Assembly: GCF_003946045.1 (NCBI RefSeq)
Contig: NZ_RHNW01000011.1
Coordinates: 50,265 to 114,264 of the forward strand
Reading direction: 5' to 3'
Source of the DNA: Levilactobacillus mulengensis
Lineage (GTDB): Bacteria; Bacillota; Bacilli; Lactobacillales; Lactobacillaceae
DNA length: 64,000 bases
Each line of letters begins with the position of its first letter. Position 1 is the first letter of the stretch. The notes below the pieces were generated by a model. The model did not search any database, was not told the DNA's origin, and was given only the letters and a program-made list of their open reading frames with translations. Below are positions 7,547-58,368 of this stretch, piece after piece. Made by a program: the position numbers and the translations under genes.

Positions 7547-7828
7547 GGCTTAGTCGATTACGGGCTAAGCCAATGTAAGCCGCAGGGCTGGGAAACTGGA
7601 CCAGTCGTGGTAGTGACCAGAGGTGAGCCAAGGTGACCAGCTGTGTCGGTGGTCTTGGCTGGCGTTCTTTGCCAGCCTAGTCCACGGGGCAACCTTTGCG
7701 ACCGTTCCTCAGGCGCAAAGTTGAGGTGGAAGCCCGTTTCTCAGGCTGGAACCGACCCCACAGCAGGGCAGCTTGAGCTCACCGCCGGGAACGGACGCGA
7801 CTAGGTCCATTTTCACCAGCCCGGAGGC
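7547..7828 (+). ncRNA. Structured dispersed RNA element, copy A
   Basis: Begins with hairpin GGCTTAG/CTAAGCC (7547-7571). The core runs from GCCGCAGGG (7579) to CCCGGAGGC (7828). Helices: terminal GGGCTGG 7585-7591 / CCAGCCC 7816-7822; P2 GGTGAGC 7622-7628 / GCTCACC 7777-7783, extended by CAAGGTG / CAGCTTG; P3 GCTGTG 7640-7645 / CACAGC 7759-7764; hairpins GGCTGGC 7657-7663 / GCCAGCC 7671-7677 and CTTTGCG 7694-7700 / CGCAAAG 7714-7720. Nearly unchanged unpaired stretches include GTGACCAG, TTCTCAGGCTGGA and CCGCCGGGAACGG. It ends 49 bases before dut with no promoter in between, so it could be part of the dut-radA leader. Class not recognised. Confidence 0.85.
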
Positions 7829-7877
7829 GACACCAAGGACAAACAAAGACAAAAGACTATCAAGGGAGTGTTTTGAC

Positions 7878-8417
7878 ATGCAACGAGGATTTGAAATTGT
7901 CAGTAAGTACGCCAACCAAGGACTAAAGCTGCCGTACCGGACCACCCAACAGGCGGCCGGCTACGATTTTGAGTGTGCGGCAGACTTTACCCTGCCATCT
8001 ATTTGGCGGCATGACCTACTCCACGCCTTCAAGCGACTTCGGCACCAGAACGAGCTGACGACCGAGGAATTACTGGCCGGTCAAAGCGACCTGAAGCCAT
8101 GGCTGGTACCAACGGGGGTCAAGGCCTACATGCAACCGGGCGAGGTCTTGATTCTGGCCAACCGGTCCAGCAGTCCGTTGAAACACAACCTGATTTTACC
8201 CAATGGTATCGGGGTGATTGACGCGGATTACTACAATAATGAAAAGAACGAGGGCGAAATTTTCGTCCAGTTAATCAATGTTGGATTAGAGGACCAGGTC
8301 ATTAAGAAGGGGCAACGTATTGCGCAGGGCCTGTTCATGCCGTATTTATTGGCTGATGATGAGCAGGCGCCGCAACAACAGCGGACCGGTGGATTCGGGT
8401 CGTCTGACCGTAACTAA
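7878..8417 (+). CDS. dut: dUTP diphosphatase (dUTPase)
   Basis: Hydrolyses dUTP to dUMP and PPi, keeping uracil out of DNA and supplying dTMP synthesis. The trimeric dUTPase motifs are present: AGYDFECA (motif 1, about residue 25), RSSSPLKHNL (motif 2, about 97), GVIDADYYN (motif 3, about 114) and the glycine-rich RTGGFGSSDR C terminus (motif 5). The 179-residue chain is longer than the 145-150 of many, with an insertion after motif 1, as in lactobacilli. Start ATG 7878 follows AAGGGAGTG; the frame is open further upstream but there it runs through structured element A and is not expected to be translated. Gene order dut-radA is common in lactobacilli. Confidence 0.93.
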   Translation: MQRGFEIVSKYANQGLKLPYRTTQQAAGYDFECAADFTLPSIWRHDLLHAFKRLRHQNELTTEELLAGQSDLKPWLVPTGVKAYMQPGEVLILANRSSSPLKHNLILPNGIGVIDADYYNNEKNEGEIFVQLINVGLEDQVIKKGQRIAQGLFMPYLLADDEQAPQQQRTGGFGSSDRN

Positions 8418-19434: not shown

Positions 19435-19459
19435 ATTGAAGTTGTATTTAATAGATCTA

Positions 19460-19562
19460 CCTAAGACTCAGGTGGCCTAATGGTCTTAATTTCCTGCCGA
19501 GGAAGAAGTTTACTTAAACTTTTGACTCCTTATGTCTTGGTGACATGGGGATTTTTTTATCC
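19460..19562 (+). ncRNA. L10 ribosomal protein leader
   Basis: The conserved L10-leader core is visible: CTAAGACTCAGGTGGCCTAA and, after TGGTCTTAATTT, CCTGCCGAGGAAG (about 19493-19505). It ends in a terminator-like hairpin (ATGTC TTGGT GACAT and seven Ts, about 19532-19559). The L10-(L12)4 complex binds this RNA and represses rplJL; that is family knowledge. Confidence 0.88.
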
Positions 19563-19591
19563 CACCAAACTACTCCGGGAGGTGAATTAAT

Positions 19592-21588: not shown

Positions 21589-22842
21589 TTACAAGGTTGC
21601 TAACCCCTTCGCCAGAATATTTTTAGCAGCATTATGGTCTCGTGCATGAAACATGCCACAACTAGGACACGTCCACTTGCGGTCAGCTAACGTCAACTTA
21701 TTCTTGCCGACCATGACATGTCCGCAATGGCTACAAGTTTGCGTCGTATTTCGCGGATCAATCGTCAAAAACTTCCGACCATACAAATCGGCTTTATAAG
21801 TCAACATGCTCAGTAACGTTCGCCAACCGACGTCTGAGATGCTCATTGCCAAAGCGTGGTTTCGTAACATATTTTTACTCCGCAGTTCTTCAGCTACGAC
21901 TAAATCGTGGTTTTTGATCAAGGCCGTAGAGACGTGGTGCAGGAAATTTTTACGTTGATTGGCAACTTTAAGCTGTAGCTGGGCTACTTGTAGCCGTTGC
22001 TTTTGATAATTCTTAGATTCTGATAAGCGCCGTTGGGCCTTTTTAGCTCGTCTGGCTCGCCGTGACAGTTTTCGTTGAGCTTTAGCCAGCCTTCCCTTAA
22101 TCATTCGGTAGTAACGGGGGTTCTCAATTACTTGTCCATTGGAGTCTGTCAGAAAATTATCAAGATTTAAATCGATGCCGACTTTAGATTCAATTGCGGG
22201 CTGCTTGGCAACAAAGGGGCATTCTGACCCAATCTGCATGGACACAAAGTAATGACCTATAGCGTCCATTGAGACCGTTGTCGTCCCGATCCTAATATCA
22301 TCAGCTCGTTCTAAAATCTTCAGCGGCAGTCCCTTGAAACGGAGACAACCTAATTTGGGCAGCCATAGATGGTGGGAATCAGTTAGTCTAACACTACCAT
22401 TCTTCATAGTTGGAACTGTCACCTTGGCACTGTAAAGACAAGAAGTTTGATAAGTTTGCTTATAACCACGCTTATGAAATTTAGGCGTCCCCGACTGATG
22501 AACCTGGTGGAATAGCTTCCAGGCAGTCTTATAATTCTTGATAGCGTTGGCTTTCATCAAGCTATCGAAGTCTGGATGATTGAGCCAACCGTGGATATTG
22601 GAGATAGCAGTCGATGGCTTCTTTAGACGCTCGGTCAAATCAGCGATTCGCTTCAAAACAAGCGTGATTGGCGTGTTAACTTTCTTCAGCCAGAATAGGT
22701 CAGTGTTCATCCCATTCATTTCGTTATAAATAAAGCGGCTCGCATCACTGTTACGTTTGATCAGCCGTTTCTGTTCGGTTGAAGGAAAGACCCGGACCTT
22801 AATCCCATAATGATAGGGTAATTGTGCCATCGTCTTCGTCAT
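21589..22842 (-). CDS. tnpB: TnpB RNA-guided nuclease (OrfB, IS605 family)
   Basis: 417 residues from ATG 22842, preceded by AAAGGAGG; the frame is open 40 codons further, but this stretch overlaps the divergent promoter region. An N-terminal OrfB helix-turn-helix region is followed by a split RuvC domain: Asp in KVGIDLNLDNF (about 220), Glu in LVVAEELRSKNM (about 322) and Asp in HARDHNAAKNIL (about 400), with a zinc finger CSHC...CPSC between. All three catalytic residues are present, so it should be active. It shares with the second TnpB at 55 kb only the family core. Confidence 0.92.
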   Translation of the reverse strand: MTKTMAQLPYHYGIKVRVFPSTEQKRLIKRNSDASRFIYNEMNGMNTDLFWLKKVNTPITLVLKRIADLTERLKKPSTAISNIHGWLNHPDFDSLMKANAIKNYKTAWKLFHQVHQSGTPKFHKRGYKQTYQTSCLYSAKVTVPTMKNGSVRLTDSHHLWLPKLGCLRFKGLPLKILERADDIRIGTTTVSMDAIGHYFVSMQIGSECPFVAKQPAIESKVGIDLNLDNFLTDSNGQVIENPRYYRMIKGRLAKAQRKLSRRARRAKKAQRRLSESKNYQKQRLQVAQLQLKVANQRKNFLHHVSTALIKNHDLVVAEELRSKNMLRNHALAMSISDVGWRTLLSMLTYKADLYGRKFLTIDPRNTTQTCSHCGHVMVGKNKLTLADRKWTCPSCGMFHARDHNAAKNILAKGLATL

Positions 22843-22937
22843 AAACCGCCACCTCCTTTGCTTGATAACAAGCATATCATATGAGTATACTGTAACCATA
22901 GTAAGTTGTCTTATAATATTATTTATGGAGGATACAT

Positions 22938-23357
22938 ATGAGTAAAAGTAATGGCGGAGCAATCCACGAGCGAGGCTATGTTTACAACTTTCATTTTCAC
23001 TTGGTCTGGGTCACCAAATACCGGCATGAAGCATTCACAACGCCTAAGTTAGTCGCTGAAATGACCGACATTCTAACGAAGATAGCCCGGCTAAACGAAG
23101 TGACCATTGAGCAGATGGAGGTAATGGCGGACAATATTCATTTGTTATTAAGCTTTAAGCCTAAGTATGCGCCAACCAGCGTTGTTAAAGCCTTCAAGGG
23201 CGGTTCGGCTCGCTTATTTTTTGAATTACATCCAGAGATAAAGGTTCAGAAGTTCTGGGGTGGACATCTTTGGTCTCCTAGTTACTTCATGAGCACCCTG
23301 GGTGATATGAGCAAGACGACCGTGGAAAACTACATTGCTAATCAGCGAAAGATATAA
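22938..23357 (+). CDS. tnpA: IS200-type Y1 transposase TnpA
   Basis: 139 residues with the REP/HUH single-strand transposase fold: HFHLVWVTKYRHEAF (about 17-31), the HUH region, SARLFFELHPEIK, and GGHLWSPSYF...VENYIANQ with the catalytic Tyr (about 132). The metal-binding HUH motif reads N-I-H (ADNIHLLLS, about 65-73): the first His is Asn through AAT at 23133-23135, one base from CAT. This may cut activity. ATG 22938 is preceded by GGAGG. Confidence 0.9.
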   Translation: MSKSNGGAIHERGYVYNFHFHLVWVTKYRHEAFTTPKLVAEMTDILTKIARLNEVTIEQMEVMADNIHLLLSFKPKYAPTSVVKAFKGGSARLFFELHPEIKVQKFWGGHLWSPSYFMSTLGDMSKTTVENYIANQRKI

Positions 23358-33145: not shown

Positions 33146-33287
33146 ATTTGCCGTAAAGGCCTTGGAGCAAGGGTGGGCTTACGAATCGTGTCAGGTCCGG
33201 AAGGAAGCAGCACTAAGTTCGTTTCGCTTTGTGCTTCAAGTTTATGTGATAATTCCAACTCCTAGTCCGTGGACTGGGAGTTTTTTT
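33146..33287 (+). ncRNA. ffs: Signal recognition particle RNA (small bacterial type) and terminator
   Basis: The conserved SRP domain IV is present: GTGTCAGGTCCGGAAGGAAG then CAGCACTAAG (about 33189-33218). The arms CTTGGAGCA (33161) and TGTGCTTCAAG (about 33231-33241) close the rod. A terminator AACTCCTAGTCC GT GGACTGGGAGTTTTTTT ends at 33287. Lies between tadA and dnaX as in other Firmicutes. Confidence 0.92.
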
Positions 33288-33513: not shown

Positions 33514-33715
33514 GTGACAGGACCCGGTCAAAAAGGCTATAATGTTAATCAGTGAATTTAAGCAAAATGGGTAAAATTATGAAGAACGTTTGTGTTACAC
33601 GTAAAGAAATATTTCGGCTAACCATTGGTGAAATAGGCAGGTCGATGAGGCCTGAGTAGTTGTAGAGCTGATGAAAATACCGCCGAAAAATAATCAGCGG
33701 GTTAAGTCAGCGTCC
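33514..33715 (+). promoter_or_regulatory. Promoter and 5' segment of structured element B
   Basis: GTGACA (about 33514-33519), 18 bases, TATAAT (33538-33543). GGGTAAAATTAT follows at about 33569, as after the -10 box of copy A. A hairpin GCTGAT/ATCAGC (about 33667-33696) precedes the core. No gene is seen in 33465-33715. Confidence 0.65.
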
Positions 33716-33986
33716 GCCGCAGGGCTGGTGAAAATGAGCTGACTAGGTCGGTGTGAGTGACCAGAGGCAGATCAAGGTGACCAGCTGTGTCGGTGGTCTT
33801 GGCCGGGGGTCTATCCCGGCCTAGAGCACGGGGCGGCCTTGGAAACTCGCGATTCTCAGCGCGGTTTCAAGCCGAGCTGGAAGACCGTTTCTCAGGCTGG
33901 AAGCGTTCCCCACAGCAGGGCACCTTGAATCTGCCGCCGGGAACGGCGCCCACAGCGTCACGGCCCATTTTCACCAGCCCGGAGGC
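33716..33986 (+). ncRNA. Structured dispersed RNA element, copy B
   Basis: Core from GCCGCAGGG (33716) to CCCGGAGGC (33986). Terminal helix is a perfect 15 bp: GGGCTGGTGAAAATG 33722-33736 / CATTTTCACCAGCCC 33966-33980. P2 GGCAGAT 33766-33772 / ATCTGCC 33929-33935; P3 GCTGTG / CACAGC; hairpin GGCCGGG 33801-33807 / CCCGGCC 33815-33821; second hairpin GGAAACTCGC / GCGCGGTTTC. It ends 54 bases before dnaX with no clear promoter between, so dnaX may be read from the element's promoter. Confidence 0.87.
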
Positions 33987-34039
33987 AAAATCAACGACCA
34001 TTTAACCAGATGAATATTTTCAAGAAAGGAACAGATTGC

Positions 34040-35776
34040 ATGGCTTATCAAGCACTTTACCGGGTCTGGCGGCCCCAGCGATTCGAGGATATGATTGGGC
34101 AAGAAGTCATTACCCGCACCTTGAAAAACGCCATTACGACCAACCAAATCAGTCACGCGTACCTCTTTGCTGGTCCGCGGGGAACCGGGAAGACCTCGGC
34201 GGCTAAAATCTTTGCGAAGGCCATCAACTGTCACCATCAAACGGACGGCGAACCCTGCAATGAATGTGAGACCTGCAAGGCCATCACTGAGGGGACGCTC
34301 AACGATGTGATTGAAATCGATGCGGCTTCGAACAACGGGGTCGAAGAAATTCGGGATATCCGGGATAAGGTGAAGTACGCGCCGACCGTGGCCGATTACA
34401 AAGTCTACATTATTGATGAAGTTCATATGTTATCGACGGGGGCCTTCAACGCGCTGTTAAAGACGTTGGAAGAGCCACCGGCTAACGTGATCTTTATTTT
34501 GGCAACCACGGAACCCCACAAGATTCCAGCCACAATTATTTCGCGGACCCAACGGTTTGATTTCAAACGAATTGCGGCCAATGATAGTTACAACCGAATG
34601 ACCTATATTTTGGACCAAAAGGGTGTCACCTACGACGAACAGGCCGTTAAGGTGATTGCCAAGGCGGCCGAAGGTGGTATGCGGGATGCCCTGAGCATTC
34701 TCGACCAGGCGTTGTCCTTTGGGGATAATGAAATCACCTTAGATAACGCGCTGTTGGTGACGGGGAGTGTGACCCATGAACTGTTGGCAACCTACGTGCA
34801 ACAGGTTCTGGCCGGAGATACCAAGGCGGCCTTAGCCACGCTCCAATCCGTTTTGGAAGCGGGCAAGGATGCCGAGCGGTTCACCGAGGACGTCATCAGC
34901 TATGCGCGTGACCTGCTACTCTATCAACAGGCCCCGCAGCTGGTTGAAGAGGCCGAGATGGGCAGTGTGAGCGAGGACTTCCAGGCTTTGGCTAAGAAGA
35001 CACCAGCGCAGACCATGTACGCCATGATCAATGAGTTAAACGCCATTCAACAACAGATGCGGTTCACCACCCATCCCGACGTTTACCTAGAAATCTTGAC
35101 CATTAAATTGGCCGAAATTGGCCGGCAGGTGGGTGCAGCCCAGCCGACAGTACCCACGGCTGAAGCATCCGCCGCGCCACAGGCAGCAGCCAGTTCAACC
35201 GAACTGACATCCCTGCAACACGAGGTCGACCAACTACGCAACACGGTCAAGCAACTGGAACAAGCTCCGGTTGCGGCGAAACCCGCAGCGGCCAAGCCAC
35301 GAACGACGAAGTCAGCGCCGGCTAAAGAAGTCAATCTCGCGAAGATCTATCCCGTTCTGGGGTCGGCTACGCGGGAGAAACTCAACCAACTCCAAGAAGT
35401 TTGGCCGGACCTGCTGGACACGTTGTCCATTACCCAGCGGGCCGTGATGAAGGTCTCACAACCGGTCGCGGCGGCGGATTCCGGAGTCATTGTGGCCTTT
35501 GATTACTCCTTCCTGTACCAGCGTGCGACGACCGATCATGAGTTGACCGACGCCCTGGAAAATGGGTTGGATCGCATGATTGGGACGGCGTTACCCGTCG
35601 TCTTCGTGCCTAAGGATGACTGGCCAACGATTCGGAAGAATTATTTGACAGCCCACCGTGAGGAGTTGCAAAATAACGCTGAGTCACCGGAACCGGCCAA
35701 GCCAGCACCTAATCCCGTCGTCACCAAGGCGGAAGAGCTGTTTGGTAAAGATGTTGTTGATGTTAAAAATGATTAA
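34040..35776 (+). CDS. dnaX: DNA polymerase III subunits gamma/tau
   Basis: Clamp-loader ATPase. LYRVWRPQRFEDMIGQ start, Walker A GPRGTGKTS (about 45-53), zinc module C..CETC (about 64-80), DEVHML (about 119), SRTQRFDF sensor 1. 578 residues, with an Ala/Pro-rich linker (about 370-430) before the tau-type C-terminal domain. ATG 34040 after AAAGGAAC; ATG 34010 is in frame without a site. Head of dnaX-ybaB-recR-yaaL. Confidence 0.96.
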   Translation: MAYQALYRVWRPQRFEDMIGQEVITRTLKNAITTNQISHAYLFAGPRGTGKTSAAKIFAKAINCHHQTDGEPCNECETCKAITEGTLNDVIEIDAASNNGVEEIRDIRDKVKYAPTVADYKVYIIDEVHMLSTGAFNALLKTLEEPPANVIFILATTEPHKIPATIISRTQRFDFKRIAANDSYNRMTYILDQKGVTYDEQAVKVIAKAAEGGMRDALSILDQALSFGDNEITLDNALLVTGSVTHELLATYVQQVLAGDTKAALATLQSVLEAGKDAERFTEDVISYARDLLLYQQAPQLVEEAEMGSVSEDFQALAKKTPAQTMYAMINELNAIQQQMRFTTHPDVYLEILTIKLAEIGRQVGAAQPTVPTAEASAAPQAAASSTELTSLQHEVDQLRNTVKQLEQAPVAAKPAAAKPRTTKSAPAKEVNLAKIYPVLGSATREKLNQLQEVWPDLLDTLSITQRAVMKVSQPVAAADSGVIVAFDYSFLYQRATTDHELTDALENGLDRMIGTALPVVFVPKDDWPTIRKNYLTAHREELQNNAESPEPAKPAPNPVVTKAEELFGKDVVDVKND

Positions 35777-37220: not shown

Positions 37221-37468
37221 GGGCTTGATGAAAAGGTCCACGCAATGTCAGTGACCAGAGGTGGGCCAAGGTGACCAGCTGTGTCGGTGGTCTTGACTGA
37301 GTGAACTTCTCAGTCTAGAGCACGGGACGACCTTGGAAACTCGCGAATCACAGCGAGGTTTCAAGGCGAGGCGGAAGACCGCTTCTCAGGCTGGAGCCGT
37401 TCCCCACAGCAGGGCGCCTTGAGCCCACCGCCGGGAACGGAGTTGCACGCAGACATTTTCACCAAGCC
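37221..37468 (+). ncRNA. Structured dispersed RNA element, copy C
   Basis: Terminal helix GGCTTGATGAAAA 37222-37234 / TTTTCACCAAGCC 37456-37468 (one A-C mismatch): where A and B have GGGCTGG/CCAGCCC, both sides changed here. P2 GGTGGGC 37260-37266 / GCCCACC 37423-37429; hairpin GACTGAG 37295-37301 / CTCAGTC 37309-37315; second hairpin CTTGGAAACTCGC 37332-37344 / GCGAGGTTTCAAG 37353-37365; P3 GCTGTG / CACAGC. Has its own promoter, and tmk has a separate one downstream. Confidence 0.87.
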
Positions 37469-44234: not shown

Positions 44235-45299
44235 ATGACGCCAGCAGAACTTTTGGCTTACCGGTTATTTCAGCAGGGGGTGTTAACGGCTGATGCACCA
44301 ATATTGCAGCCGGTTACGCAGGTGATGGGGATTCAAGCCCAGAATCAGCGGGTCGCCGAACTGACCATCGCGCTACAAACGCAGGCCAGCATGGCCGAGT
44401 TGACGGCGCTGTATCAGACGCGGCAACTGGTTCGCTCCTGGGGACAACGGTGGACGCTACACCTCTATACCACGGCGGACTGGCAGTTGATGATCAACGC
44501 CCGGCAAACGGAGCGGCTCCCCAAAGCTTATTTTGAGGGACAGTCCGAGCAGGTCCATGCCGTAGCCGATGAGATTGCGGCGGTCCTGCAGCATCAGGAG
44601 CTGTCCAAGGCGGATTACCTGACCTGTGTGGCCGAGCGGGTTCCTGACCTGAAGCGCTCACGGAACTTTGACTATGCGGTACTCCAGGTGCTGGAAGCGC
44701 AAGGTCGAGCCGTGATGCCGGGTCAGCCGGGGCAGAGTCAGTTTCACCTGTTTCGACCGGACTTTACCCGGGTTGACCAGCAAGTGGCGACACAGGAACT
44801 GATTCGTCGCTACCTGATGGGATTCGGTCCCGCCACGTTGACGGACTTTGTCAAATGGTCGGGCGTTAAGATTGGCAAGGCCCGGCCGGCGTGGCGCGTG
44901 GTTGAACCCGAGTTGACGCCCGTGACGGTTGCGGGTAAAACGCTGTGGCTGATGCAGGCAGTGTCGGCCCAGCGGTTACGAGAAATAACGGCAGAGGTGG
45001 CCGACCGCACGCTGATTGCGCCGCGGTTCAGTTCACTCATGACCGGCTACCAGCAAAAGGCCTGGTTGGTCGACTCCAAACTACAGTCAAAAATGTGGAC
45101 CGTGAATGGGATCCTGATGGCCCCAATTATTGCCAACGGCCAGTTGGTCGGCCACTGGAATTATCAGATTTCGGGGAAACGGATGCGGTTTACGGTAACG
45201 CGTTGGGGTGACTTTGATCAGCCAGTTGTGGAGAGATTCTTCCGGCGTATCGCCGAGTTCTGCCAGTTAACGTATGACGGCATTTCGGTTACTGATTAG
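44235..45299 (+). CDS. Winged-helix DNA-binding protein, AlkZ-like (HTH_42 family)
   Basis: About 354 residues. QVMGIQAQNQ (about 28-37) carries the Q-x-Q motif of AlkZ/YcaQ DNA glycosylases; RSWGQRWTLHLY (about 72-83) and the C-terminal PRFSSLMTGYQQKAWLVDSK...ILMAPIIANGQLVGHW also follow the family. AlkZ unhooks interstrand crosslinks; whether this member does is not shown. ATG 44235 gives 8-base spacing to AAGGGAG; ATG 44229 is too near. Confidence 0.8.
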   Translation: MTPAELLAYRLFQQGVLTADAPILQPVTQVMGIQAQNQRVAELTIALQTQASMAELTALYQTRQLVRSWGQRWTLHLYTTADWQLMINARQTERLPKAYFEGQSEQVHAVADEIAAVLQHQELSKADYLTCVAERVPDLKRSRNFDYAVLQVLEAQGRAVMPGQPGQSQFHLFRPDFTRVDQQVATQELIRRYLMGFGPATLTDFVKWSGVKIGKARPAWRVVEPELTPVTVAGKTLWLMQAVSAQRLREITAEVADRTLIAPRFSSLMTGYQQKAWLVDSKLQSKMWTVNGILMAPIIANGQLVGHWNYQISGKRMRFTVTRWGDFDQPVVERFFRRIAEFCQLTYDGISVTD

Positions 45300-45324: not shown

Positions 45325-45572
45325 GGACTGGTGAAGATGGGCCAGAGCATGATCCTGGCCGTTCCCGGCGGCGGACTCAAGGTGCCCTGCTATGGGGTCG
45401 GTTCCAGCCTGAGGGGCGGTCTGGGACCTCGACTTTGAGCCGAGAGGCGGTCTCAAAGGTCGTCCCGCGGACTAGGCTGGACAAGAACTCCAGCCAAGAC
45501 CGCCGACACAGCTAGGCACCTTGGTCCGCCTCTGGTCACTGACATTATCATGTCGGCTAATTTTCACTATCC
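45325..45572 (-). ncRNA. Structured dispersed RNA element, copy D
   Basis: Minus-strand copy. Terminal helix GGATAGTGAAAAT (45572-45560) with ATCTTCACCAGTCC (to 45325), including wobbles. P2 GGCGGAC / GTCCGCC (45530-45524 and 45376-45370); hairpin GGCTGGA / TCCAGCC; second hairpin CTTTGAG.CCG / CGGCTCAAAG; P3 GCTGTG / CATAGC (one G-U where others have CACAGC). GTGACCAG, CAGGCTGGA and GCCGGGAACGG are kept. It faces away from element E and does not precede a gene on its strand; downstream is the antisense end of the AlkZ-like gene. Confidence 0.85.
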
Positions 45573-45661: not shown

Positions 45662-45694
45662 GGTCGTTTCCATTTTTATTGGGAACGACTTTTT
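45662..45694 (+). terminator. Terminator between elements D and E
   Basis: GGTCGTTTCC (45662-45671) / GGGAACGAC (45681-45689) then five Ts. Plus-strand orientation; a weak promoter-like stretch precedes it. Confidence 0.7.
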
Positions 45695-45770
45695 AATAAG
45701 GATGTTTTACGGCGAATCGTCCTCGTTTGAAGTGGCGGAAATTCCGTATTGATGGGCTAAGCCGAAGTGA

Positions 45771-45947
45771 GCCGCAGGGTGGGGGAAAATAAGCCTAGCC
45801 GTGGGAGTTTCCTTAGCGGCTTGGCCGCTTAGGAAACTGATATCTTTGAGACGCGTTTCTCAGCGGCTCAAAGTAAGTCTGGAGAACGGTTTTTGGCTCC
45901 AGGCGTTCGCCCACCGCGGACCGGTCTTATTTTCCCCACCCGGAGGC
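45771..45947 (+). ncRNA. Structured dispersed RNA element, copy E (compact variant)
   Basis: GGGCTAAGCC (45754) then GCCGCAGGG (45771) to CCCGGAGGC (45947). Terminal helix GGGTGGGGGAAAATAAG 45777-45793 / CTTATTTTCCCCACCC 45926-45941, 16 bp with one bulged G. Hairpin CTTTGAGACGC 45844-45854 / GCGGCTCAAAG 45863-45873 corresponds to the second hairpin of the others. The GTGACCAG-P2-P3 module is absent; in its place is GTTTCCTTAGCGGC / GCCGCTTAGGAAAC. The SDR gene downstream has its own promoter. Confidence 0.8.
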
Positions 45948-45958
45948 ACGATAAAAGC

Positions 45959-45990
45959 GTTTACATATAAACGGCAATCTGCAGTATACT
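45959..45990 (+). promoter_or_regulatory. Promoter of the SDR gene
   Basis: TTTACA, 17 bases, TATACT (about 45960-45988), 26 bases before ATG 46014. It separates element E from the gene. Confidence 0.75.
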
Positions 45991-57163: not shown

Positions 57164-57442
57164 GCGATTGATCTTGCGCTTGAGTCCTGGGCTCAAGGTC
57201 TTGGGCCAAACGGGCTAAGCGAACGCAGCAACCAACGCACAATCGAGAGCCGGAGGAAGCCAGGACGGAGACGGCTGTGTCGATTCTGTTAGTCGGCGTT
57301 CTTGGGCCGGCTTACAGAATGGGACAATCTTTGAGCCCTGCATGAACTTAGCAGGGCTCAAAGTTGAGGTGGGAGCCCGCACTCCAGGCGGAAACCGGCC
57401 CCACAGCAGGCGTAGTCCTGGAAGCCGCAGGCGGCCAATCGC
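57164..57442 (+). ncRNA. Structured dispersed RNA element, copy F (divergent)
   Basis: Outer helix GCGATTG 57164-57170 / CAATCGC 57436-57442; side hairpin CTTGAG/CTCAAG (57179-57198); GGGCTAAGC at 57209. P2 CCAGGAC 57260-57266 / GTCCTGG 57415-57421; P3 GCTGTG / CACAGC; first hairpin ATTCTGT-AGTCGGC / GCCGGCT-ACAGAAT (57283-57320); second hairpin a perfect 13 bp CTTTGAGCCCTGC / GCAGGGCTCAAAG (57329-57363). The GGA and GCA internal-loop triplets are exchanged between strands compared with A, B and E (GCCGGAGG 57249, GCCGCAGGC 57424). No gene follows on this strand. Confidence 0.82.
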
Positions 57443-57561: not shown

Positions 57562-58368
57562 TTAGATTAAGCCCATCATAGAAGCAAATGGTGGAACAAC
57601 GATATCAACAACGATAGAGATAACAACAACGGCGATGGATGCCATAGACCCTTGGATAGAACCAAGTTGTAAGGCCTTAGCAGAGCCAACCGTGTGTCCG
57701 GCAGTACCTAAACCAAGTCCGGCACCAATTGGGTCGCTGTTAACATGGAAGAACTTAACGAGCCAGTCACCCAAGGCGTAAATGATAACGGCGTTGAGGA
57801 TGCAGGCCATGGCAGTAACGGCAGTGTTACCACCGATAGCACCGGCAATAGGCATCGCGATGGCGGTCGTGGCAGCTTGTGGCATCATTGAAGCAATACC
57901 AACGTTGTCCAAACCGACAAGCTTTGATACGTAGTAGATAACGAACAAGGAAATAACTAACCCAACGATCAGGGAAAGCACGATTTCCAACCAGAACTTC
58001 TTAACAACGTCATTCCGACGGTACAGAGGAATAGCGAAGGCGATAGTAGCTGGGTTCAAGAACCAGAAGATAATGTTACCACCTGGTAAGTAGGCTGACT
58101 TGTAGAAAGTAGCCGTATCCGTTCCGAATGCCTTAGCAAACAGGAACAGGATGAAGATCCCTAAGACCATCCCAACGAACAGAGGTTGGAATAAGAAGAA
58201 ACCTTTACCGATCTTGAATAACCATTGACCGAATAAGTAAACAACTAATGATAGAAAAATACCAAATAATGCGTTACCGGCAGAAGCACCAGCGGCGTTA
58301 GTTCCTAACGCGTCACCGAGCCATTTGCCCCAAGCTGCCATATGGGCAGTTGCAGTTAAAGTCATCAT
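57562..58368 (-). CDS. lrgB: LrgB family protein (antiholin-like / pyruvate transporter partner)
   Basis: 268 residues with about seven membrane segments; TAIAMPIAGAIGGNTAVTAMACILNAVIIYALGDWLV and LGLGTAGHTVGSAKALQLGSIQGSMASIAVV are the LrgB/CidB signature. With LrgA it forms a membrane system linked to cell-death control and, in some Firmicutes, pyruvate transport. AAAGGATG before the start. Second gene of lrgAB, 44 bases after lrgA. Confidence 0.92.
   Translation of the reverse strand: MMTLTATAHMAAWGKWLGDALGTNAAGASAGNALFGIFLSLVVYLFGQWLFKIGKGFFLFQPLFVGMVLGIFILFLFAKAFGTDTATFYKSAYLPGGNIIFWFLNPATIAFAIPLYRRNDVVKKFWLEIVLSLIVGLVISLFVIYYVSKLVGLDNVGIASMMPQAATTAIAMPIAGAIGGNTAVTAMACILNAVIIYALGDWLVKFFHVNSDPIGAGLGLGTAGHTVGSAKALQLGSIQGSMASIAVVVISIVVDIVVPPFASMMGLI

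What the first reader, a model, noticed from the sequence alone, without database searches (positions are those of the whole stretch)
7547..7828. A six-copy family of covarying structured RNAs dispersed in intergenic gaps
Seen: six elements (A 7547-7828, B 33716-33986, C 37221-37468, D 45325-45572 minus, E 45771-45947, F 57164-57442) share one secondary structure. Helix P2 reads GGTGAGC/GCTCACC (A), GGCAGAT/ATCTGCC (B), GGTGGGC/GCCCACC (C), GGCGGAC/GTCCGCC (D) and CCAGGAC/GTCCTGG (F). The first hairpin reads GGCTGGC/GCCAGCC, GGCCGGG/CCCGGCC, GACTGAG/CTCAGTC, GGCTGGA/TCCAGCC and AGTCGGC/GCCGGCT. The terminal helix and second hairpin also covary. Unpaired GTGACCAG, TTCTCAGGCTGGA, CCGCCGGGAACGG and the GCCGCAGGG/CCCGGAGGC end loop are nearly fixed. 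Paired changes on both arms mean selection on RNA. Six copies in 64 kb suggest many in the genome. I do not recognise the class among known leaders, SRP, 6S, tmRNA, RNase P, T-box or omega RNAs.
Basis: partly seen in the sequence, partly recalled or inferred. Interest (0 to 1): 0.95.

Follow-up and report, generated by a model that had tools for sequence, protein, structure and literature searches.

The report
Hundreds of gene-edge RNA-like hairpin elements
This Levilactobacillus genome carries an estimated several hundred copies of one complex hairpin element between its genes, mostly pointing at the nearest gene end; its paired bases change together as in structured RNAs, and it most likely spread as a non-autonomous repeat that is predicted to act inside mRNA leaders and tails.

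Summary
Covariance models find all six elements; paired positions covary far above shuffle controls (20 of 41 and 19 of 34 pairs with changes on both sides); Rfam searches found no match to them. The six are not one uniform structure: A-D are a long type, E a short type, F a variant.

I counted 181 copies in 864 kb of this genome, about 650 if extrapolated. Matches occur in 33 of 35 Levilactobacillus genomes and in 8 of 40 sampled genera of its family, its own included. No copy has its midpoint in a called gene. The core's 3' end lies nearer a gene boundary than its 5' end in 103 of 111 and 56 of 65 copies, whatever that gene's strand. Neighbours of opposite strand in one gap are divergent (49 to 0). 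So copies sit sense before genes and antisense after them. Sites persist between close species while some cores are exchanged.

Best reading: a new family of structured dispersed repeats, BOX/ERIC-like in kind, predicted to act on mRNAs that contain it. Transcription, function and mobilising enzyme are not shown.

The parts
7562..7840 (+). Element A, long type, just upstream of a dUTPase-like gene (7878-8417 +)
   Evidence: R1 core match 7637-7767, 154.7 bits; fold z -6.4; Pfam dUTPase
33697..34003 (+). Element B, long type with extended second hairpin, upstream of dnaX (my call starts at 34040 +)
   Evidence: R1 core match 33781-33919, 125.3 bits; outer ends approximate, read
37221..37468 (+). 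Element C, long type with extended second hairpin and unrecognisable outer ends, upstream of tmk (37562 +)
   Evidence: R1 core match 37275-37413, 120.1 bits
45325..45572 (-). Element D, long type, antisense just after the AlkZ-like gene that ends at 45299 (+); left half of a divergent pair
   Evidence: R1 core match 45386-45515, 132.7 bits; Pfam
45662..45690 (+). Terminator-like hairpin in the spacer between D and E, so D lies between the stop codon and this site
   Evidence: consensus scan; not evidence of function
45753..45965 (+). Element E, short type, upstream of a short-chain dehydrogenase gene (46014 +); right half of the divergent pair
   Evidence: R2 core match 45798-45917, 122.9 bits; fold z -5.5
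57240..57442 (+). Element F, variant type with the GGA/GCA loop on swapped strands; its 3' end faces the 3' end of an LrgB-like gene (57562-58368 -)
   Evidence: R1 core match 57271-57410, 110.9 bits; outer ends approximate

Best explanation
The six elements belong to a family of an estimated several hundred dispersed copies in this Levilactobacillus genome, each a long hairpin rod with a three-hairpin head whose pairs covary, which most likely spread as a non-autonomous repeat and is predicted to act as a folded segment of mRNA leaders (sense) and 3' regions (antisense). Shown: copy number in 28% of the genome, structure and covariation, presence across the genus and in other genera, confinement between genes, the orientation grammar, persistence at orthologous sites in two close relatives, and exchange of cores. 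Inferred: that the + strand is the one selected to fold; that copies lie inside transcripts; that the grammar reflects direction-dependent tolerance or benefit, for example polar processing or protection of the transcript that contains the element, as reported for some ERIC and Correia elements. Untested: transcription, effect on genes, and the enzyme that spread the copies.
For: Copies: 111 in 464 kb and 70 in a second 400 kb of this genome; 150 of 150 scored candidates match genome-wide, a cap. Distribution: 33 of 35 congeners, 97 candidates scored each; 26 of 151 family genomes, 8 of 40 genera including its own. Midpoints in called genes: 0 of 113, 0 of 51, 0 of 70. 3' end nearer a gene boundary: 103 of 111, 38 of 43, 56 of 65. 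Same-gap neighbours: divergent 21, 15, 13; convergent 0, 0, 0; same direction 12, 3, 9. In loci picked around listed matches in four further genera, 12 of 12 neighbour pairs within 600 bases are divergent (read from the table). Near copies whose 3' side gene converges on them, 31 terminator calls lie beyond the element, 9 inside, 8 between stop codon and element. Upstream of copies with a same-strand gene on the 3' side, promoter-like sites in 13 of 47 against a shuffled mean of 6.5 (60 shuffles, maximum 12); between element and gene 2 of 47 against 2.3. Imperfect pairs, G-U against A-C: 38 to 11 in 87 of 144 long copies parsed, 24 to 1 in 55 of 70 short copies; 14 to 5 and 16 to 5 in copies with same-strand and convergent 3' genes. 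Conserved mismatches and 3x3 purine loops persist in hundreds of copies. Orthologous same-type cores 90.4% identical against 75.9% in the 5' flank.
Against: No RNA data. The reverse strand of A folds as well. Polarity is weaker or unclear elsewhere: first hairpin of short copies 16 to 11, outer arms 6 to 3 and 2 to 3 in 26 copies; on whole alignments it depends on which strand's structure is chosen (long copies 146 to 68 for the sense structure, but 125 to 144 in sense terms for the antisense structure). 3' flanks next to genes are more conserved (94.3%) than cores. No enrichment of promoters upstream of copies facing convergent genes (6 of 63 against 7.2). No clean target-site duplication or fresh insertion in the six gaps viewed. 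No autonomous partner found. The grammar itself has no demonstrated cause.
Confidence: 0.5

Rival explanations
1. The selected object is DNA, not RNA: a palindrome that extrudes or folds as single-stranded DNA (protein-binding, topological or recombination site, BIME-like). Covariation comes partly from correction of one arm by the other and from gene conversion between copies.
For: In gap 97 the outer arms of orthologous copies in close species differ by paired changes on both arms. Cores are exchanged at fixed sites: 8 of 67 orthologous comparisons have a different type with core identity 0.61 or less. Polarity is the same in copies that the neighbouring gene would transcribe as sense and as antisense (14:5 and 16:5), which fits a strand property of the element rather than of the mRNA. 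The reverse strand folds as well.
Against: Fixed bulges and 3x3 purine loops survive in both types, which arm correction should erase; head polarity 38:11 and 24:1. The same polarity is also expected of a folded single DNA strand, so it does not separate RNA from single-stranded DNA.
Confidence: 0.25
2. A true cis-regulatory RNA class (leader or riboswitch-like) that controls the downstream gene.
For: Sense copies lie upstream of start codons with promoter-like sites enriched on their far side; complex covarying head.
Against: 63 of 110 copies examined face a convergent gene instead; neighbours in the window are unrelated: dUTPase, DnaX, thymidylate kinase, short-chain dehydrogenase, AlkZ-like, LrgB; hundreds of copies and tandem arrays.
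Confidence: 0.1
3. Small RNA genes with their own promoters in the 5' spacer, transcribed towards the neighbouring genes.
For: Divergent pairs share a 5' spacer; + strand polarity in both contexts.
Against: Promoter-like sites are not enriched upstream of copies facing convergent genes (6 of 63 against 7.2 in shuffles); a simple consensus scan, so not decisive.
Confidence: 0.07
4. REPIN-like repeats spread by an IS200-type (Y1) transposase, or a retroelement copied by a reverse transcriptase.
For: The window and a relative's locus carry IS200/IS605 insertions; inverted pairs of copies recall BIMEs.
Against: Y1 is found in 23 of 35 congeners; it is absent from copy-rich genomes such as G012 and G002 and present in both genomes without R1 matches, G022 and G043. 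Reverse transcriptase (PF00078) is found in 10 of 35 and not in the own genome. Elements are about 210-310 bp, not 20-40.
Confidence: 0.05

Closest known systems
BOX elements of Streptococcus pneumoniae (PMC3049150, abstract part and 12 passages seen)
   Same: Dispersed, intergenic, modular, fold strongly as RNA, found next to unrelated genes, clustered, no longer moving fast
   Different: Here GC-rich, several hundred copies estimated, branched head with heavy covariation, two interchangeable core types, strict divergent grammar
ERIC sequences of enterobacteria (passages of PMC3049150 and PMC10969869)
   Same: Long imperfect palindrome between genes, up to 711 copies reported in Photorhabdus, orientation-dependent effect on transcripts reported
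   Different: ERIC is 127 bp and simple; here 210-310 bp with a three-hairpin head and another host family; no ERIC sequence was compared
Correia elements / NEMIS of Neisseria (passages only)
   Same: Terminal inverted repeats, co-transcribed, reported RNase III substrates
   Different: Different length, host and structure; RNase processing here is only a proposal
REP/BIME and REPINs (listings only; details recalled)
   Same: Inverted pairs of palindromes between genes, hundreds of copies
   Different: Length, branched structure, no link to Y1 transposases across the genus

Membership tests
Any Rfam 15 family | Score at or above the gathering cut-off | tested here: not met
   Whole window at gathering threshold: only L10 leader and small SRP RNA, neither overlapping an element. 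Permissive search of A, D/E and F regions: nothing but three chance matches at A, E 0.72 or worse. B and C had the gathering search only.
MITE-type repeats | Short (<500 bp), high copy, between genes, base-paired | tested here: met
MITE-type repeats | Terminal inverted repeats | tested here: met
   GGGYTAAAC...GTTTAACCC in well-kept copies; decayed in others
MITE-type repeats | Target-site duplication | tested here: inconclusive
   Six orthologous gaps viewed; no clean duplication or precise empty site
MITE-type repeats | AT-rich | tested here: not met
   Core GC 0.44-0.66 in own copies; window GC 0.50. Not a strict criterion.
MITE-type repeats | Related insertion sequence with the same ends | tested here: inconclusive
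   In 464 kb one clear end without a detected core, a truncated copy, and no gene inside; rest of genome not searched for this
REP/BIME-RAYT systems | 20-40 bp palindromes linked to a Y1 transposase | tested here: not met
   Length, and Y1 distribution 23 of 35 not tracking copies
Riboswitch or leader RNA class | Sense position upstream of functionally related genes | tested here: not met
   63 of 110 copies face a convergent gene; six neighbour genes unrelated; no genome-wide functional enrichment was run
BOX elements | boxA-boxB-boxC sequence modules | not tested
   No BOX sequence was fetched or modelled
Independent RNA gene | Own transcript | not testable with these tools
   No RNA data held

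The most novel reading that the evidence does not exclude
A structured, SINE-like bacterial element that marks transcript ends: its sense fold guards the way into a gene from the promoter side and from the terminator side, so that copies point into transcription units, and a trans-acting factor that reads the three-hairpin head uses several hundred such marks for RNA processing or insulation across a genus.
Probability: 0.18. Interest if true: 0.9.

Novelty: new variant of a known kind. Interest (0 to 1): 0.7.

Why it matters
If the estimate holds, this is among the densest small-repeat families in bacteria (711 ERIC copies are reported for Photorhabdus, PMC10969869 passage), in food-relevant lactobacilli, without an Rfam match and not met in my seven paper searches. 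Its orientation grammar, 49 divergent to 0 convergent neighbour pairs, is sharp and testable and is not what random insertion or an ordinary leader RNA predicts. It offers hundreds of natural replicates to ask how folded repeats shape mRNA ends, and a clean case to separate RNA selection from palindrome correction.

Tried and rejected
Plasmid and phage searches with element A: no match. Own-promoter idea: not supported for copies facing convergent genes (an earlier count was flat). A-rich 5' flank: weak, in both classes, not pursued. Polarity on whole alignments: depends on the structure chosen; my first pattern parsed only 22 of 144 long copies, the corrected one 87. Y1 transposase and reverse transcriptase as drivers: distribution does not fit. 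An autonomous copy with a gene inside: none seen; large insertions in relatives were an IS200/IS605 and ordinary genes. 5'-half fragments (13 of 15 fragments outside detected elements, 10 of them on the 5' side in the same direction) first looked like aborted copying; gap 77 shows that deletion of the head leaves a similar remnant. A pseudoknot between the invariant GGG and CCC of the head cannot be judged, as both do not vary. Rows dropped before counts: half of a copy split between two stretches (L181:1-74) and a weak match overlapping another copy on the other strand (L179:15376-15499), and later. An apparent + - pair in G012 (gap 75) is a 37-base match on the opposite strand of the same element. 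One counted copy (L186:217-367) overlaps a called gene by 44 bases. Gene calls are my own codon-usage ORF calls, not curated. No genome-wide test of neighbour function and no R-scape run were made.

Full report
What was checked. The window is part of a 3.11 Mb genome. A search with the window's Tmk gives L. wangkuiensis and L. lanxiensis as nearest named records, 99% and 98% identical, so the genus is Levilactobacillus (the own record may be left out there). Element A by plain blastn has 65 matches in the own genome on both strands, matches in 19 of 40 relatives (calls it all in one genus, the own), and none in the plasmid and phage collections.

Structure. Aligned copies show an outer rod with terminal inverted repeats, an internal loop GCA/GGA (GCCGCAGGG/CCCGGAGGC), and a head of three hairpins closed by GCTGTG/CAYAGC in the long type or a GCCGTGG-type helix in the short type. 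Long copies (A-D) carry an extra rod section. F-like copies, seen also in other species (L034-L037), carry the loop on swapped strands. Short copies (E) lack the section. Pair counts against shuffles and slid structures are; these controls do not remove relatedness. Polarity of imperfect pairs favours the + strand in the head, with the limits told above, and the reverse strand of A folds about as well.

Numbers. Model R1 matched all 150 scored candidates in the own genome, of 1592 first-look candidates (a cap). In 864 kb read in full (the window, C12:1-360000, C33:1-40000, and parts of C1, C23, C31, C34 and C2) I count 111 + 70 = 181 copies. R2 added no further place in the first sample as far as I compared the tables, and in the second sample the union of both models gave 70. 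Density differs: 6 in the 64 kb window, 3 in 40 kb of C2, 16 in 60 kb of C34, 93 in 360 kb of C12. Scaled, about 650 per genome. Genus: 33 of 35 genomes, G022 and G043 none, at most 97 candidates scored per genome. Family: 26 of 151 genomes and 8 of 40 genera, own included, with 22 candidates per genome scored and stricter filters, so a lower bound. Of the 80 tmk loci I searched 63 with R1: outside Levilactobacillus and unnamed kin only Lactiplantibacillus daoliensis (L127) has matches there.

Position grammar. First sample: 111 copies, core 3' end nearer a gene boundary in 103; median distances 96 (3') and 515 (5'). Second sample, a replicate with the same gene-calling code: 56 of 65, medians 123 and 498. 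Thirty tmk loci of other species (L098-L127): 38 of 43 copies with genes called on both sides, of 51 copies. Same-gap neighbours: divergent 21, 13 and 15 (one of the 15 pairs is in Lactiplantibacillus daoliensis); convergent 0, 0 and 0; same direction 12, 9 and 3. In loci picked around listed matches in four further genera, 12 of 12 neighbour pairs within 600 bases are divergent (read from the table, no gene calls). The rule holds whether the near gene points away (element sense before it) or towards the element (element antisense after its stop codon). Terminator and promoter scans place copies mostly inside transcripts. These scans use simple consensus rules, and a terminator next to tandem copies is counted for each copy.

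Evolution. Between this genome and G012/G021, gaps keep the same strand pattern in 67 element comparisons. Same-type cores are 90.4% identical, arms 87.7%, 5' flanks 75.9%, 3' flanks next to genes 94.3%. Fourteen of 67 differ in the long/short length label; in 8 the core identity is 0.61 or less, which I take as exchange, and the other six are partial matches or length effects. Gap 97 keeps its site-specific outer arms while the core is short in this genome and long in the other two. Gap 109 differs in orientation between this genome and G012. Extra copies are gained or lost in several gaps, and remnants are mostly 5' halves on the 5' side. I could not date or pin an insertion.

Reading. High number, both orientations, clusters, exchange of cores and unrelated neighbours make this a dispersed repeat family. 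Covarying heads with fixed loops make it unusual among such families. I propose that copies act as folded parts of leaders and 3' regions with a polar effect on the transcript. ERIC and Correia elements are precedents for processing of co-transcribed repeats (passages of PMC3049150 and PMC10969869). The main rival is that DNA structure and arm correction explain the pairs; the polarity seen does not separate RNA from single-stranded DNA.

Literature. The listings of searches show no paper on such a family in lactobacilli. Of PMC2864571 I saw three passages (its Lactobacillales motifs are named there); of PMC2267715 one passage and the start of the abstract (one Lactobacillus species in its table); of PMC3049150 and PMC10969869 twelve passages each. 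Most subscription journals are not in that library, so the family may be in print elsewhere.

Noticed in passing
window 21589-23357: IS200/IS605-type insertion: TnpB-like gene (-) and Y1 transposase gene (+), Pfam matches.
   Followed up: partly
window 19442-19566 and 33159-33245: Rfam L10 leader and bacterial small SRP RNA, ordinary features.
   Followed up: no
L180:2780-3430 (G000:C12:62780-63430): Array of truncated 5' halves of the element with shared flanks; a relative (G012) has full and half copies there.
   Followed up: partly
L208 from about 7833 (G021): IS200/IS605 pair and further ORFs, together about 3.2 kb, in a gap that is 210 bp in this genome and G012, with one long element copy beside it.
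   Followed up: partly
G022 and G043 (whole genomes): Two Levilactobacillus genomes without R1 matches although other congeners have from 4 up to the scored cap; both carry Y1 transposases.
   Followed up: no
own gap 97, C12:137405-138029 and G012/G021 counterparts: Orthologous outer arms differ by matching changes on both arms between close species: selection on pairing or template-switch correction.
   Followed up: no
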